Position numbers and translations under genes: made by a program
From: a bacterium
GTDB lineage: Bacteria; Patescibacteriota; Dojkabacteria; JAKAPS01; JAJZLI01
DNA: 47,473 bases
NCBI GenBank assembly: GCA_027459825.1
Contig: DAIDGT010000007.1
Location: forward strand, 1 to 47,473
Reading direction: 5' to 3'
Shown: positions 40,381-46,833 of the stretch, one piece after another
Layout: every line of letters starts with the position of its first letter
Numbering within the stretch: position 1 is the stretch's first letter
Notes under the pieces: generated by a model
Databases searched by the model: none
Told to the model about the DNA's origin: nothing
Seen by the model: the letters and a program-made list of their open reading frames with translations, nothing else

Positions 40381-40650
40381 TTATCCTTTTGCAACAATCA
40401 ATGATAAAAGTGTACTGGTAGCAAATAGAGTTGCAACTACAATAGTTGCATAAGTTAAAAACTTCTCTAATCCTCTGTGTGATCTAAATGATTCTCCCCC
40501 TCCATATCCACCAAATGTTGCAGAAAACGTTGCTCCCCTATTTTGTAAAATAATAAGGATTATAAGAATAATTGATAGGGCAATCTGCATTTTATCTAGT
40601 TGATTAGCGTTCATATATAAGATAATATAAAAAGTTATGAAATACTTCAA
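40381..40650 (-). CDS. secG: Preprotein translocase subunit SecG
   Basis: IALSIILIILIILQNRGATFSATFGGYGGGESFRSHRGLEKFLTYATIVVATLFATSTLLSL. Confidence 0.9.
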   Translation of the reverse strand: MKYFITFYIILYMNANQLDKMQIALSIILIILIILQNRGATFSATFGGYGGGESFRSHRGLEKFLTYATIVVATLFATSTLLSLIVAKG

Positions 40651-42625
40651 ATTATTGCTGGTTCCTATACTCTTTATAACTCTTTTGACAGGAAAAATTT
40701 ATGCCAGCTCTTCTTCGTATTCCGTCAATTATAACATTTTATATAATATATCGCGAGACGGAGAGACAAATGTCACATATAATATATCGCTTACGAATCT
40801 AACATCAACAGATTACGCTTCTTCTTACTCGCTATCTATTCCTAATACAGACATATCTAACCTTTCTGTTACAGATTCGTATGGTAATCCTCTAAATTAC
40901 ACAGATAATGTCTCAAAAGGAATTACAACAATTGTAACAAATTTCTCCTCTGTGGTTTATGGGTATGGAACATCACAAAACTGGGTTATATCATATAAGA
41001 CGAGTCAAATAGCCCTAGTGCATGGAAAACTTACAAATATTGTTATTCCGGGGTTTGTTAATAATGCAATATATGGTAGTATAACAACAACAATTAACAT
41101 ACCCGATTCACTTGGAAACGTTAATTTCTCTTCTCCTGTAAATCCTCAAATTACTAAAGAGAATGGATATTATTCCGTATTTTATAACAGTAGTCAGTCA
41201 TATACTCCATTAGGGATACTTCTTTCTATTGGTGATTACCAAAATTATGCATTTAAATTCAATTATAAACTTGAAAACACGGATATTTTTAATACACAAA
41301 TATTTAAAATAGTTATTCCTGCTGATTTTTCTACACAAGAAGTAACATTTTCAAAAATACAACCTACTCCAACAAAAACATATATTGATGGTGATGGAAA
41401 CTATATATTAGAATACCTACTCTCTCCTCGCCAGACAGTAAATGTTTCTATTAACGGAGAAGCCCAAGTATATTCAACATATGGACAGTTAAATAACCCT
41501 CTACCTCAAACATTATCATTGAGTCAGAGTGAAGTTAATGTATTAACTTCCACGCAACCTTACTGGCAGGTATCTAGTTCTTCTATAAAAGCTCTTGCGC
41601 AAAAGATAATAAAAGGAGATACAACAGTACTTCAGAAAGCTCAAAGTATTAATAATTATGTTTCCAGTACTTTGAAATATAATGATAAGGCAATACTTGA
41701 TTCAACAAGGCAAAGGTTAGGAGCGCTAAAGGCTCTCTCAGAACCAGATAATGCTATATGCCAAGAATATGCAGATCTATTTGTAACTCTTGCCAGGGCA
41801 GATGGAATACCATCAAGAATGCTTGCAGGATATGGGGATCCTCCTACCGTAAATGTTAACCCTCTTCCATCCAATATATTACATGCATGGGCGCAATTTT
41901 TTGATCCGTCATACGGGTGGGTAAGCGTTGATCCAACATGGCAGTCAACTTCAGGAGGATTAGATTTTTTTGGGAATGTGGGTTCTACTCATTTTGTCAT
42001 AGCAAGGTATGGAGAAAGTTCAATAAATCCTCCTTTAATATTATCTTTTGTAAAAGAAAAAAATCCTCAAAATAATATAAATATTGAAGCGACCTCAAAT
42101 GCATTTAACCCAAATCCTAATTTTATTCCAAGTGTAACAAATGCGCCAGATTTGATATCAGGTATCACAAATGAATTAAAAGTTAAAATAGATAATACTG
42201 GCAATCAAGTCTTAACAGGAGTATCTGTATCTTTAAATGCTCAAAATAAAAATTTACAAATAGGAAAAATAGATTTATCTCATGAAGCTATATTTCCAGG
42301 AGAAAGTGAGTATGTTTATATCCCTATAAAAATGGGTAGTTTTTTTGCAAACGGGAGCGAAACTGTACAAATAAAAGTGTCATTTGAAAATTATCAAAAA
42401 CAGATTATTACAAAAAATGTAATGACACTTCTAACATTTAAGCAAATATTTTTATCTGGTATTGTTCCTTGGGTTCTTGTTCTTATTTTAATCATTATAT
42501 CAATCATAATTTCAGATATAATACTAAAACTTAAAGTTGGTGAGAATAAAAGACGATGGACAGAAAATAATTACTATAGAATAAAAAATAAAAAAGTCCC
42601 ACCAACAAATTCTACACAAGAATAA
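40637..42625 (+). CDS. Secreted/membrane transglutaminase-like protein
   Basis: Signal peptide, AICQEYADLFVTLARADGIPSRMLAGYG...HAWAQFFDPSYGWVSVDPTW (Cys-His-Asp), C-terminal TM helix. Confidence 0.88.
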   Translation: MKYFKLLLVPILFITLLTGKIYASSSSYSVNYNILYNISRDGETNVTYNISLTNLTSTDYASSYSLSIPNTDISNLSVTDSYGNPLNYTDNVSKGITTIVTNFSSVVYGYGTSQNWVISYKTSQIALVHGKLTNIVIPGFVNNAIYGSITTTINIPDSLGNVNFSSPVNPQITKENGYYSVFYNSSQSYTPLGILLSIGDYQNYAFKFNYKLENTDIFNTQIFKIVIPADFSTQEVTFSKIQPTPTKTYIDGDGNYILEYLLSPRQTVNVSINGEAQVYSTYGQLNNPLPQTLSLSQSEVNVLTSTQPYWQVSSSSIKALAQKIIKGDTTVLQKAQSINNYVSSTLKYNDKAILDSTRQRLGALKALSEPDNAICQEYADLFVTLARADGIPSRMLAGYGDPPTVNVNPLPSNILHAWAQFFDPSYGWVSVDPTWQSTSGGLDFFGNVGSTHFVIARYGESSINPPLILSFVKEKNPQNNINIEATSNAFNPNPNFIPSVTNAPDLISGITNELKVKIDNTGNQVLTGVSVSLNAQNKNLQIGKIDLSHEAIFPGESEYVYIPIKMGSFFANGSETVQIKVSFENYQKQIITKNVMTLLTFKQIFLSGIVPWVLVLILIIISIIISDIILKLKVGENKRRWTENNYYRIKNKKVPPTNSTQE

Positions 42626-42663
42626 AGCATTTTATTCCCCATTTATCACTTATATAGGGTAAC

Positions 42664-45306
42664 TTGACAAGAGTTTTTTATACATATAATATAGTTTTAG
42701 CAATGGCAATTTCTAATAGTTTAAAAATTATTTATCAATACGGAGATATCACTTCAGAGAATGTAGGAAAAGTTGGTGAAAAAGCTCTCAATATTTCAGA
42801 AATTTACAGAATGTCTTTACCAACCCCTCCAGGATTCTTTATTTCATCTGATGCATATAGATATTTTTTAGATTTTTCCAAAATAGGAGAAATAATAAAA
42901 AGTAAACTTGGAGGTATCGACTTTCTAGATGATGAAGATATACAAAAATCTTCCGCGTATATGGAAGACTTGATTATGAGAGCAGAAATTCCTCCTGTTC
43001 TTGAAAAGGAAATATTAAGGGCATATTCAAAATTTTCAGGGTTTTCTGATTTAATTGTTTGTGTAAGATCATCTTTTGTATATGATAAAAATGTTGAAAT
43101 AAGTGAAAATGCTCAAACTACTTTTTTAAATATCAAGGGTGCATCTGAACTTATACTGGCAATCAAAGCTTGTTGGGCAAGCTTATTTGAAGTTGACTCA
43201 CTTAAATTCAGAAATAAAAATAAAATAAGTCAGCTTACCGCGTCTACATCGATAATTGTACAAAAAATGATACAAAATACTTCATCAGGTATTATGTTTA
43301 CAATATCTCCTGGCACAAATGATGATAATAAAATTTCGATACAAGCTGTAAGTGGTCTATGGGATATAGCAAATGCAAAAGATATAAACCCCGACTTATA
43401 TCACATAGATAAAAATTCTTTAAGGATAGTATTAAAAGAAATTTCAAAACAGGAACTTGCGCTAGTTAGAAATCCTAAAAGTAAAAGTATTAGTGATTCA
43501 ATCATAAAGACAAAAATACCAACAAAATTTCAAGAGAGCCAGAAAATAGATGATAAAAGTTTAATTCTACTAGCAAAGTATGGAAAAATTTTATCTGAAA
43601 TGTATAAATATCCTCAAGAAATAAGATGGGGAATTGAAAAGGGTAAAATATGGATATTTAAATCCTCTCCTATTCCTGGTGAAATAGAGGAAAACACAAA
43701 TCCAATACAGGAAGTAGATACAGTTTCTATTAAAGAAGAAATTCAAGAAGTAAATCAGGAAGATAATCAAGAAGTAGTGAAAAAACAGGAACAAAATTCT
43801 ACTAATAGTATAGGAGAACACACTTTAATACTTACAGGATCGTCTGGAGGAAATGGAAATGTTACAGGCACTGTTCGTATTATTCCTGAATTATCAGATA
43901 ATATGTCTATAGAAACAGGAGATATTTTAGTTACAAGAGATATTGATTCGGATAAATGGTTAGATACTCTATCAAAAGCATCTGCTCTAATATTGGATTT
44001 TGGAACAGATCCAAAATCTATTGCAAATGATGCAATAAGAAAATTGGGTATTCCTGCCATCTTAAGTACTCAAATTGGGACTAAAATTCTGCATAATGGA
44101 CAAAATGTAAACGTTGATGGTGTATCTGGTAAAGTATATTTAGAAGCATCTGAAGTCAAAAAAGAAATCGAGGATACACAAAATAATGTCAAAGAAGATC
44201 AAGAAACTAAAGAGATCGCAGTAGAACATGTTGAAATAGTAAATGAACCACAAGTTGTTGCCCCTGTGGAAGAAAAAGAAATAAAAGAAGAAATACCTGA
44301 GGTAATAAAAGAAGTAGGACCAAAGGAAGAACAAAAAGTAGAAATTAAACAACAGGAGAAAAAAACAGAAGAGGTCATAAGTGAAATTACCTCAATGCCT
44401 AAAGTCACTATAAAAACAGCTACAAAGGTATATGCGAGGGTATTTGATCTCGATCTTGCAGAAGATATATCAAAATTAAATATTGATGGAATGTATATTT
44501 CTGGAAATCAAGTTATTAAAAAACTTAAAATTCACCCAAAGCAGGCCCTAAGTTCTCAAAAACAAAAAGAGTATGTAACAGAACTTGCTAAGATAGTTGC
44601 AAATGTATGTTCTCTTGTTCCTCCAACAGAAACTGTAGTATATGAAATTTCTAATTTTTCATCACCAGAATTATTTGAATTGGATGGAGGTCTGCAGTTT
44701 GAAACCAAGGAGGAAAATCCAGTTATAGGATATAGAGGCGCAATTAAACATATTAAAGAGCAAGAAACTTTTGATATGGAGCTTGAAGTTATAAAGTTGG
44801 TTAGGAATAAGTATGGACACAAAAATTTATGGATATCAATACCATATTTGAGAACTCCACAAGAGCTTATAGAAGTAAAAAAAATAGTTCTAAATCATGA
44901 TCTGAGAAGATCTTCTACTTTTAAGATATTTGCTAATATAGATCTACCCGCTAATGTCATTATGCTAAACAAATTCTTGGAAGTTGGAGTTGATGGAATT
45001 AATATAAATATAGAACATCTTTCTAATATCATGATGGGTATAGATATAAAAAATCCCAAAATATCCAATCTTCCTTATAAAGATAATGAATTAGAAGAAA
45101 CTATCATAGTTGACACTCTGAAACAATCAAATAAATATAAAACTGTTAACATGGTAACCTATTCCAATCTACTAGATAACCCTAAATATTTAGAGTATTT
45201 GATAAAAAAGGGAGTAAATATTCTAAGTATTGAACCTGCAAAAGCTCAGGAGACAAAAATGAAAATTTCAGAAATTGAAAGATCTGTAATAACTTCAAGA
45301 AAATAA
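42664..45306 (+). CDS. PEP synthase-like multidomain protein with altered catalytic residues
   Basis: N-terminal PPDK_N/ATP-grasp (VRSSFVYDKN, CWASLFEVDSLKFRNK, VQKMIQNTSSGIMFTI), central swivelling domain (DILVTRDIDSDKW...LGIPAIL), C-terminal TIM-barrel-like end (DNPKYLEYLIKKGVNILSIEP). Start may be the ATG at 42703. Confidence 0.82.
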   Translation: MTRVFYTYNIVLAMAISNSLKIIYQYGDITSENVGKVGEKALNISEIYRMSLPTPPGFFISSDAYRYFLDFSKIGEIIKSKLGGIDFLDDEDIQKSSAYMEDLIMRAEIPPVLEKEILRAYSKFSGFSDLIVCVRSSFVYDKNVEISENAQTTFLNIKGASELILAIKACWASLFEVDSLKFRNKNKISQLTASTSIIVQKMIQNTSSGIMFTISPGTNDDNKISIQAVSGLWDIANAKDINPDLYHIDKNSLRIVLKEISKQELALVRNPKSKSISDSIIKTKIPTKFQESQKIDDKSLILLAKYGKILSEMYKYPQEIRWGIEKGKIWIFKSSPIPGEIEENTNPIQEVDTVSIKEEIQEVNQEDNQEVVKKQEQNSTNSIGEHTLILTGSSGGNGNVTGTVRIIPELSDNMSIETGDILVTRDIDSDKWLDTLSKASALILDFGTDPKSIANDAIRKLGIPAILSTQIGTKILHNGQNVNVDGVSGKVYLEASEVKKEIEDTQNNVKEDQETKEIAVEHVEIVNEPQVVAPVEEKEIKEEIPEVIKEVGPKEEQKVEIKQQEKKTEEVISEITSMPKVTIKTATKVYARVFDLDLAEDISKLNIDGMYISGNQVIKKLKIHPKQALSSQKQKEYVTELAKIVANVCSLVPPTETVVYEISNFSSPELFELDGGLQFETKEENPVIGYRGAIKHIKEQETFDMELEVIKLVRNKYGHKNLWISIPYLRTPQELIEVKKIVLNHDLRRSSTFKIFANIDLPANVIMLNKFLEVGVDGININIEHLSNIMMGIDIKNPKISNLPYKDNELEETIIVDTLKQSNKYKTVNMVTYSNLLDNPKYLEYLIKKGVNILSIEPAKAQETKMKISEIERSVITSRK

Positions 45307-45342: not shown

Positions 45343-46833
45343 ATGATTTCAAAAGAAAAAGTCATCCTTGTTATACTCGATGGATTTGGAATTCCTTCAT
45401 CTTCAGATAATGTTATAAGTTTAGCTTACAAACCTTTCTTTGATTGGATAAGTAAAAACAGTATTTATACAAAACTGAAAGCATCAGGAACATCTGTCGG
45501 ACTTCCAGATGGAATTATAGGAAATAGTGAAGTTGGCCATATGAATATTGGAGCAGGAAAAGTAGTTCAACAATATTCTAAATTTATTTATGATGATATG
45601 CAAAGTGGGCTCTTTTTTAAAAAAGAGTCTCTATTAAATTTTATAGAAAAGATAAAGTCTACAAATGGAGATATTCACCTTATGGGACTACTTTCTGATG
45701 GTATGGTACATAGTAGTATAGATCAGTTAGAGGAAATACTTTCTTTTTTGAAAAATAACACACAAATAACTGTATATCTACATATATTTTCTGATGGCAG
45801 AGATAGTGATTATAAAAGTGTAAAAAAATACATAACACAAATTGAACCAATATTATCTGAGAAGGTAAAAATAGCAAGTATCATTGGTAGATATTATGCA
45901 ATGGATAGGGATACTCACCTTGAAAGGACTACTAAAGCCTTCGATTTAATAAAAAGTCACAAAGGAAAAGCTGTATCAAATATTTTGGATGCAGTGAATG
46001 ATTCATACAGCAGAAAAATATATGATGAGTTTATTGAACCGTATTATATTGAAAATACTCCACCAATAAGAGAAAATGATGGTATTTTTTTCTTTAACTT
46101 TAGAGAAGATAGAGCGAGACAATTAACAAAAATGTTCCTTGATAATACAAACAATACTTTTCTTGCAATGGTAAAGTATCTGGATGAAGATAACCTAGAG
46201 TATATCTACGATAGAATTCACGTACAAACACCTATTGGAGATGTTATATCAAATACAAATTTATACCAATTTAGAATTGCAGAAAGTGAAAAATATGCTC
46301 ATGTAACATACTTTTTTAATGGAGGAAGAGAGGAAGCGTATAAAGGAGAAGATAGACTGGTAATTCCTTCTTTACGAATTCCAACATATGATATGAAACC
46401 ACAAATGAGAGCATATGATATAACAAGAGAAGTTATATCTAAAATACACCTAAAAAAGTATTCTTTTATTGTTGTTAATTTTGCTAACCCAGATATGGTT
46501 GGACATACTGGTAATTTTCAAGCATGTAAAATGGCAATTGAATGTATAGATAAATGTTTACAAAAAATATATACAATCACAGAAAAAGAAGGATACGATA
46601 TTATCATAACTGCAGATCACGGAAATGCAGAAGCTTTAGAAAATAATGGAAAGGTACATAAGGAACACACGACATCTTTAGTTCCTTTTATTTTAAAAAA
46701 TAAAAAAGTAACAAAAGGTGTAGAAATTCAAGAAGGTATACTTGCAGATATTGCGCCAACTATACTGAATATTTTAAAAATTAAAAAACCTGATACCATG
46801 ACAGGTCAAAATTTAATAGATAATGTATTATGA
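45343..46833 (+). CDS. gpmI: 2,3-bisphosphoglycerate-independent phosphoglycerate mutase
   Basis: VILVILDGFGIP, GNSEVGHMNIGAGKVVQQ, FSDGRDSDYKS, IGRYYAMDRD, FFFNFREDRARQLT, ADHGNAEAL. Confidence 0.97.
   Translation: MISKEKVILVILDGFGIPSSSDNVISLAYKPFFDWISKNSIYTKLKASGTSVGLPDGIIGNSEVGHMNIGAGKVVQQYSKFIYDDMQSGLFFKKESLLNFIEKIKSTNGDIHLMGLLSDGMVHSSIDQLEEILSFLKNNTQITVYLHIFSDGRDSDYKSVKKYITQIEPILSEKVKIASIIGRYYAMDRDTHLERTTKAFDLIKSHKGKAVSNILDAVNDSYSRKIYDEFIEPYYIENTPPIRENDGIFFFNFREDRARQLTKMFLDNTNNTFLAMVKYLDEDNLEYIYDRIHVQTPIGDVISNTNLYQFRIAESEKYAHVTYFFNGGREEAYKGEDRLVIPSLRIPTYDMKPQMRAYDITREVISKIHLKKYSFIVVNFANPDMVGHTGNFQACKMAIECIDKCLQKIYTITEKEGYDIIITADHGNAEALENNGKVHKEHTTSLVPFILKNKKVTKGVEIQEGILADIAPTILNILKIKKPDTMTGQNLIDNVL

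What the first reader, a model, noticed from the sequence alone, without database searches (positions are those of the whole stretch)
42664..45306. PEP-synthase-like protein that appears catalytically dead but keeps its architecture
The swivelling domain normally carries the phospho-His in a TSHAAIVARELGIPA-type motif. The aligned segment here is KSIANDAIRKLGIPA, so His is replaced by Ile. The C-terminal end DNPKYLEYLIKKGVNILSIEP matches the PEP synthase/PPDK barrel end, but the usual GICGQ-type catalytic Cys segment just before it reads NMVTYSN. Two long acidic Glu/Gln/Lys-rich linkers join the domains. The ORF is intact at 880 aa and sits directly before gpmI, which suggests a repurposed scaffold or regulator rather than decay.
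Basis: partly seen in the sequence, partly recalled or inferred. Interest (0 to 1): 0.7.

Follow-up and report, generated by a model that had tools for sequence, protein, structure and literature searches.

The report
Class-wide dead PEP synthase look-alike
A group of tiny bacteria (Dojkabacteria) carries a protein built like the sugar-metabolism enzyme PEP synthase but stripped of the residues needed for catalysis, and selection has kept it across almost the whole group, so it probably does a different, non-enzymatic job and should not be counted as that enzyme in their metabolism.

Summary
The ORF (42664-45306; likely start ATG 42703, 867 aa) keeps the three PEP-synthase domains, confidently modelled, joined by two long disordered acidic linkers. 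Of 13 catalytic positions it retains only two (both in the ATP domain); phospho-His is Ile453 and the catalytic Cys is Thr832. It is not decay or assembly error. The same paralogue occurs in nearly all Dojkabacteria (WS6) genomes held (81 of 86 match). None of 50 copies read has both His and Cys, and none keeps Asp704, whereas all 6 canonical Dojkabacteria PEP synthases and essentially all of 38 copies from other phyla keep the full set. Canonical and non-canonical copies split cleanly in trees (100/100). Close pairs show dN/dS 0.05-0.08. In the window's family a conserved, gene-specific promoter element precedes the gene in 6 of 6 loci. That family also lacks enolase in 8 of 8 genomes and pyruvate kinase in 7 of 8, so a role at the PEP/pyruvate step is implausible there. 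Best reading: a lineage-specific PEP-synthase pseudoenzyme kept for a structural or regulatory role; its partner and mechanism are inferred, not shown. I found no earlier description. Interest 0.62.

The parts
42703..45306 (+). pseudo-PEP-synthase gene, 867 aa from ATG (880 aa if read from TTG 42664)
42769..43701 (+). ATP-grasp-like domain (PPDK_N); keeps Lys40 and Arg135 but Glu320-, Gln334- and Arg336-equivalents are Arg, Lys, Ser
   Evidence: fold match to the rifampin phosphotransferase ATP domain
43681..43815 (+). acidic disordered linker 1 (pLDDT < 50)
43912..44130 (+). swivel domain (PEP-utilizers) without phospho-His (Ile453, codon 44020-44022)
44182..44352 (+). acidic disordered linker 2 (pLDDT < 50)
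44419..45303 (+). PEP-binding TIM-barrel domain without catalytic Cys (Thr832, codon 45157-45159) and without the R511, R578, N703, D704 equivalents
42645..42692 (+). conserved gene-specific promoter: ATCACTTATATAGGGTAACTTGACA, 17-nt spacer, TAATAT
40637..42625 (+). transglutaminase-like protein with apparent signal peptide and C-terminal membrane helix; Cys and His-Asp motifs intact; directly upstream of the pseudo-PEPS in families f1, f2, f3, f5, f11
45343..46833 (+). gpmI (phosphoglycerate mutase), downstream neighbour

Best explanation
The gene belongs to one Dojkabacteria-specific paralogue lineage of PEP synthase that has lost phosphoryl-transfer chemistry (in the window at all three sites: ATP site, phospho-His, PEP/pyruvate site) but keeps the three folded domains, now on long flexible acidic linkers. 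SHOWN: losses class-wide, one split from canonical PEP synthases, folds predicted intact, reading frames intact, purifying selection, gene-specific promoter in the window's family. INFERRED: it works without catalysis as a structural or regulatory protein; most likely the barrel (the most conserved domain in this family, homologous to the 24-mer octahedral core of archaeal PEP synthases) is an oligomeric scaffold and the tethered ATP-grasp and swivel domains are docking or ligand-sensing arms. The exported transglutaminase-like protein encoded next door in several families is the best partner candidate. Confidence splits: not a PEP synthase 0.95; selected non-catalytic role 0.8; scaffold in particular 0.35.
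For: 13 catalytic positions: window KRERKSISEDEHT against KRDEQRHRRENDC in E. coli PpsA and the 6 canonical Dojkabacteria copies (K27 lies outside one truncated locus). Of 38 outside copies, 35 are identical at all 13, two lack only an unread first position, one has D318E. Of 50 non-canonical copies none has both His and Cys, 0 of 50 keep D704. Split 100/100 in a careful tree and SH-aLRT 100 in the larger one. dN/dS 0.067, 0.053, 0.045 for three close pairs. Both AF2 models keep all domains, pLDDT mostly > 90 for the window; barrel matches 9dae (TMt 0.88, 1.4 A over 305 columns) and 8a8e (0.91), ATP domain 5hv6 (0.90). Linkers two- to fourfold longer than canonical. In the window's family the barrel is the most conserved domain (0.59) and the swivel the least (0.36), while the swivel is the most conserved in canonical groups. 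S. marinus PEP synthase is a 24-mer (PMC8100219). Promoter element in 6 of 6 loci, unique genome-wide in G002, G004, G005.
Against: No partner, oligomer or phenotype is shown. Interface residues of the 24-mer could not be compared. Neighbours differ between families (AI-2E transporter and MutS in f15), so the transglutaminase link is not universal. dN/dS could not be measured for the window itself (46% identity to its nearest relative), and dS is high in all pairs. Two f2 copies keep the His, so loss was stepwise rather than one event.
Confidence: 0.72

Rival explanations
1. Nucleotide or metabolite sensor: in most of the class (f15 and kin) the ATP-grasp domain still binds ATP without transferring phosphate and signals by docking of the swivel domain, like a pseudokinase; the window's copy would be a derived form.
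For: f15-type copies keep K27, R127, E320, Q334 nearly invariantly while D318 and R336 are mostly replaced (R336 by K), and share a fixed pattern KRxEQKDDSDPR.
Against: In the window's own family the ATP site is also degraded (24 of 52 canonical-invariant ATP-domain positions kept; Q334 and R336 lost in all six copies), so this cannot explain the window's copy alone.
Confidence: 0.25
2. Neutral decay: a relic PEP synthase on its way out.
For: Catalytic sites are lost; a few distant copies are very divergent, and one (G016) is split in two frames.
Against: Intact 835-1054-aa frames across many genera, dN/dS 0.05-0.08, fixed replacement residues in f15, conserved promoter element, confident folds.
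Confidence: 0.05
3. New catalysis on the old barrel: in the window's family, which lacks enolase, mostly lacks pyruvate kinase and has no canonical PEP synthase but keeps GpmI and MurA, the barrel has taken up another reaction near PEP.
For: Enolase absent in 8 of 8 and PK in 7 of 8 family genomes; GpmI adjacent; a MurA-type gene present in 7 of 8; the barrel is the best conserved domain.
Against: The old active-site columns hold no conserved polar residue set in the family (R511 S/Y, N703 E/D/N, D704 H/E/N/K/Y, C751 T/S/Y); the same paralogue exists in relatives with PK.
Confidence: 0.04

Closest known systems
PEP synthase / pyruvate, water dikinase (PpsA, EC 2.7.9.2; TIGR01418, NF005057)
   Same: Full-length homology, same domain order, predicted folds match solved PEP-synthase domains
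   Different: No phospho-His, no catalytic Cys, PEP and ATP site residues replaced, longer linkers, scores below both equivalog cut-offs (409 < 598 and 396 < 740 bits)
24-mer PEP synthase of Staphylothermus marinus / Pyrococcus (PDB 9dae, 8a8e)
   Same: Barrel domain fold (TMt 0.88-0.91) in a family with a known giant octahedral assembly (PMC8100219)
   Different: Those are active enzymes; assembly of the Dojkabacteria protein is untested
Pyruvate phosphate dikinase (PPDK, TIGR01828)
   Same: Same three functional domains
   Different: 48.9 bits against a cut-off of 843; catalytic residues absent
Rifampin phosphotransferase (RPH)
   Same: ATP-grasp and swivel domains, used for a different chemistry
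   Different: RPH is an active enzyme that keeps phospho-His and lacks the PEP barrel (established knowledge); here the barrel is present and His absent

Membership tests
PEP synthase (EC 2.7.9.2) | PPDK_N + PEP-utilizers + PEP-utilizers_C in this order | tested here: met
PEP synthase (EC 2.7.9.2) | Phospho-accepting His in TxHAA motif of the swivel domain | tested here: not met
   Ile453; no conserved alternative His
PEP synthase (EC 2.7.9.2) | Catalytic Cys in GICGQ-type motif and Arg/Arg/Glu/Asn/Asp PEP and metal ligands | tested here: not met
   C751T, R511S, R578E, E680D, N703E, D704H
PEP synthase (EC 2.7.9.2) | ATP-grasp residues Lys, Arg, Asp, Glu, Gln, Arg | tested here: not met
   Lys and Arg kept, four of six replaced
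PEP synthase (EC 2.7.9.2) | NCBIfam equivalog cut-off | tested here: not met
   409.2 < 598 (NF005057), 395.6 < 739.75 (TIGR01418); canonical Dojkabacteria copies pass with 902-1176 bits
PEP synthase (EC 2.7.9.2) | Pyruvate + ATP to PEP + AMP + Pi activity | not testable with these tools
   needs purified protein
Pseudoenzyme | Enzyme homologue with conserved fold and lost catalytic residues | tested here: met
Pseudoenzyme | Maintained by purifying selection across a clade | tested here: met
   class-wide presence, dN/dS 0.05-0.08 in f15 pairs, 0.17 in one f1 pair near saturation
PEP-synthase-type 24-mer scaffold | Octahedral oligomer of barrel domains | not testable with these tools
   monomer fold match only
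Rifampin phosphotransferase | Phospho-His swivel domain and no PEP-utilizers_C barrel | tested here: not met

The most novel reading that the evidence does not exclude
A class-wide non-catalytic PEP-synthase homologue forms a large cage-like assembly (as archaeal PEP synthase does) with ATP-grasp and swivel domains on disordered acidic tethers, serving as a cytoplasmic hub for cell-envelope proteins such as the neighbouring transglutaminase-like protein: a metabolic enzyme turned structural scaffold in Dojkabacteria.
Probability: 0.1. Interest if true: 0.85.

Novelty: new variant of a known kind. Interest (0 to 1): 0.62.

Why it matters
Patescibacteria reconstructions use PEP synthase to connect pyruvate and PEP where pyruvate kinase is missing (PMC7304191). 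In Dojkabacteria that call would be wrong for most genomes: only 6 of 86 hold a canonical enzyme that I could find, while about 80 hold a PEP-synthase-like match that an automatic annotator could call PEP synthase. It also gives a well-sampled natural series (canonical; His kept and Cys lost; all lost) of a large swivelling enzyme turning into a non-enzyme, in genomes so reduced that an 870-aa useless protein is unlikely to be kept, and it leaves a directly testable question: what is the protein for.

Tried and rejected
Alternative phospho-His or Cys elsewhere in the protein: none conserved at a plausible site. Second intact copy in the genome: none. Assembly error: excluded by orthologues from independent assemblies. 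Single-protein scan of genome contigs: no hits; the alignment scan worked and named the class. Dead copies outside the class: none among the 38 outside copies read, nor in the motif-bearing best outside hits of a 380-genome phylum sample; weaker hits were not read one by one. The 24,769-aa frame in G043 is a masked run of N. Test that the f2 copies group with canonical enzymes: not rejected (p-AU 0.32), so their exact branching is open. Gap-free k-mer comparison showed the promoter element is no more conserved than some coding and tRNA stretches; its 1-nt spacer variation hides it there. Literature: no paper held joins PEP synthase with 'pseudoenzyme'; one unrelated paper for PPDK.

Full report
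CHECK OF THE OBSERVATION. The ORF at 42664-45306 is open and intact and matches PPDK_N, PEP-utilizers and PEP-utilizers_C in the canonical order; its best sequence relatives among solved structures are PEP synthases. Aligned with E. coli PpsA (locus L105), the phospho-His (H421) is Ile453 and the catalytic Cys (C751) is Thr832. That H421 and C751 are the phosphoryl acceptor and acid/base residue, and that the others bind ATP, metal or PEP, is established knowledge of PpsA and PPDK, carried over by alignment.

START AND PROMOTER. The annotated TTG is the first base of a perfect -35 box: TTGACA, 17 nt, TAATAT (42664-42692), followed by ATG at 42703. In all six family-f1 loci read (the window and five relatives) the same spot carries ATCAnTTATATAGG (AGCA in one), 2-3 nt, nCTTGACA, then a -10-like hexamer; 21-22 of 22 specified bases match in each. 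No other place in the sequence held reaches 20 of 22. A genome-wide scan with the 2-nt spacing found only this place in G002, G004 and G005; the 3-nt spacing was not scanned genome-wide. As these proteins are only about 45% identical, the intergenic conservation points to selection on expression of this gene. The two f2 loci lack the element, their gene following the transglutaminase-like gene almost without gap.

STRUCTURE. AlphaFold2 on a 52-row alignment of the window protein and its relatives gives mean pLDDT 84.5, with 576 of 867 residues at 90 or more and two internal segments below 50 (327-371 and 494-550, ATG numbering): the acidic linkers. Foldseek: full length to N. meningitidis PEP synthase 2ols (E 2.6e-49); barrel to 9dae (TMt 0.88, rmsd 1.4 over 305 columns) and 8a8e (0.91); ATP domain to rifampin phosphotransferase 5hv6 (0.90). 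A class representative whose barrel Pfam no longer recognises (L066) is still predicted as a barrel matching 9dae and 8a8e (0.79, 0.81). So the architecture outlives the catalytic residues. Linkers are mostly 50-150 aa in pseudo copies against 24-37 in canonical groups.

DISTRIBUTION AND IDENTITY. The genome is 764 kb, 32 contigs, 90% complete. 81 of 86 class genomes have a match; some of the weaker matches are other PEP-utilizer proteins. Of 50 copies aligned (window included), 48 lack the His, 48 lack the Cys, none has both, none keeps D704 (a few divergent f5, f8, f12 rows align poorly, and L051 is incomplete). Two f2 copies (L046, L053) keep TSHAA or SSHAA but have lost Cys: an intermediate stage. 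Six genomes carry in addition a canonical enzyme with the full set; in three of them (G039, G041, G045) pyruvate kinase lies close by. Of 38 copies from Woesebacteria, Chloroflexi, Micrarchaeota, Altiarchaeota, Actinomycetota and others, 35 are identical at all 13 positions. In a 380-genome phylum sample the best outside hits whose motif could be read carry canonical His or Cys motifs.

TREE AND SELECTION. In a careful IQ-TREE run of 35 rows, pseudo and canonical copies lie on opposite sides of one branch, 100/100; an 84-row quick tree agrees at SH-aLRT 100. Long branches are present and the order within the pseudo side is weak; placing f2 with the canonical side is not rejected. The simplest history is one Dojkabacteria paralogue that lost Cys/D704 early and His later. 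dN/dS is 0.045-0.067 for three close f15 pairs, 0.077 and 0.17 for two wider pairs whose dS is near saturation. In f15 the replacements themselves are nearly fixed (KRxEQKDDSDPR), including a swap of the R511/D704 charges; that these form a salt bridge is not tested.

NEIGHBOURHOOD. A transglutaminase-like protein is encoded directly upstream in families f1, f2, f3, f5 and f11 (in f11 one antiporter-like gene lies between; Pfam hits; catalytic Cys and His-Asp motifs seen in the window's copy). In f2 the order is transglutaminase, PEPS-like, enolase, GpmI; in f1 enolase is gone and GpmI follows. In f15 the neighbours are an AI-2E family transporter upstream and MutS downstream (read from its sequence). 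Enolase is absent from all eight f1 genomes, pyruvate kinase from seven, while a MurA-type gene is present in seven. The window's organism therefore has no visible PEP-pyruvate chemistry for this protein to serve or regulate.

MECHANISM. A dikinase role is excluded as far as sequence can. A non-catalytic role under selection is well supported. Which role is inference: the barrel is the best conserved domain in f1 and the swivel the worst (0.59 against 0.36), the reverse of canonical groups, where the swivel is the best or equal best; PEP-synthase barrels are known to build 24-mers (PMC8100219; PDB 9dae, 8a8e); disordered tethers free the other two domains. That fits an oligomeric scaffold with docking arms better than a sensor in f1; in f15, where ATP-site residues are mostly kept, nucleotide sensing remains possible.

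NOVELTY. Pseudoenzymes are a known kind. A PEP-synthase/PPDK pseudoenzyme held by a whole bacterial class was not found in the library searched. That library holds open-licence papers only, so an earlier mention cannot be excluded.

Noticed in passing
window genome G000 and family f1 (G001-G007): Enolase absent in 8 of 8 and pyruvate kinase in 7 of 8 genomes, no canonical PEP synthase seen, yet GpmI (window 45343-46833) and a MurA-type enzyme are present: the source of PEP for cell-wall synthesis is unclear.
   Followed up: partly
L046 4957-7575 and L053 4417-7116 (G009, G008): Copies that keep the phospho-His (L046 also all six ATP-site residues) but have lost Cys and the metal-ligand Asp; L046 might still autophosphorylate without a pyruvate acceptor site.
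   Followed up: partly
f15 copies, e.g. L066 4314-6878: Former active-site residues replaced by a nearly fixed set, including His421 to Asp and a swap of the R511/D704 charges to D/R.
   Followed up: no
window 40610-40636: Another short stretch conserved between f1 loci, between the divergent secG-like and transglutaminase-like genes.
   Followed up: no
G043 contig C1 near 673118 (L091, L216, L217): A reported 24,769-aa open frame is an artefact of masked N.
   Followed up: yes
L090 4340-7119 (G016): PEP-synthase-like gene split in two frames (557 and 321 aa), possibly a frameshift or two-gene form.
   Followed up: no
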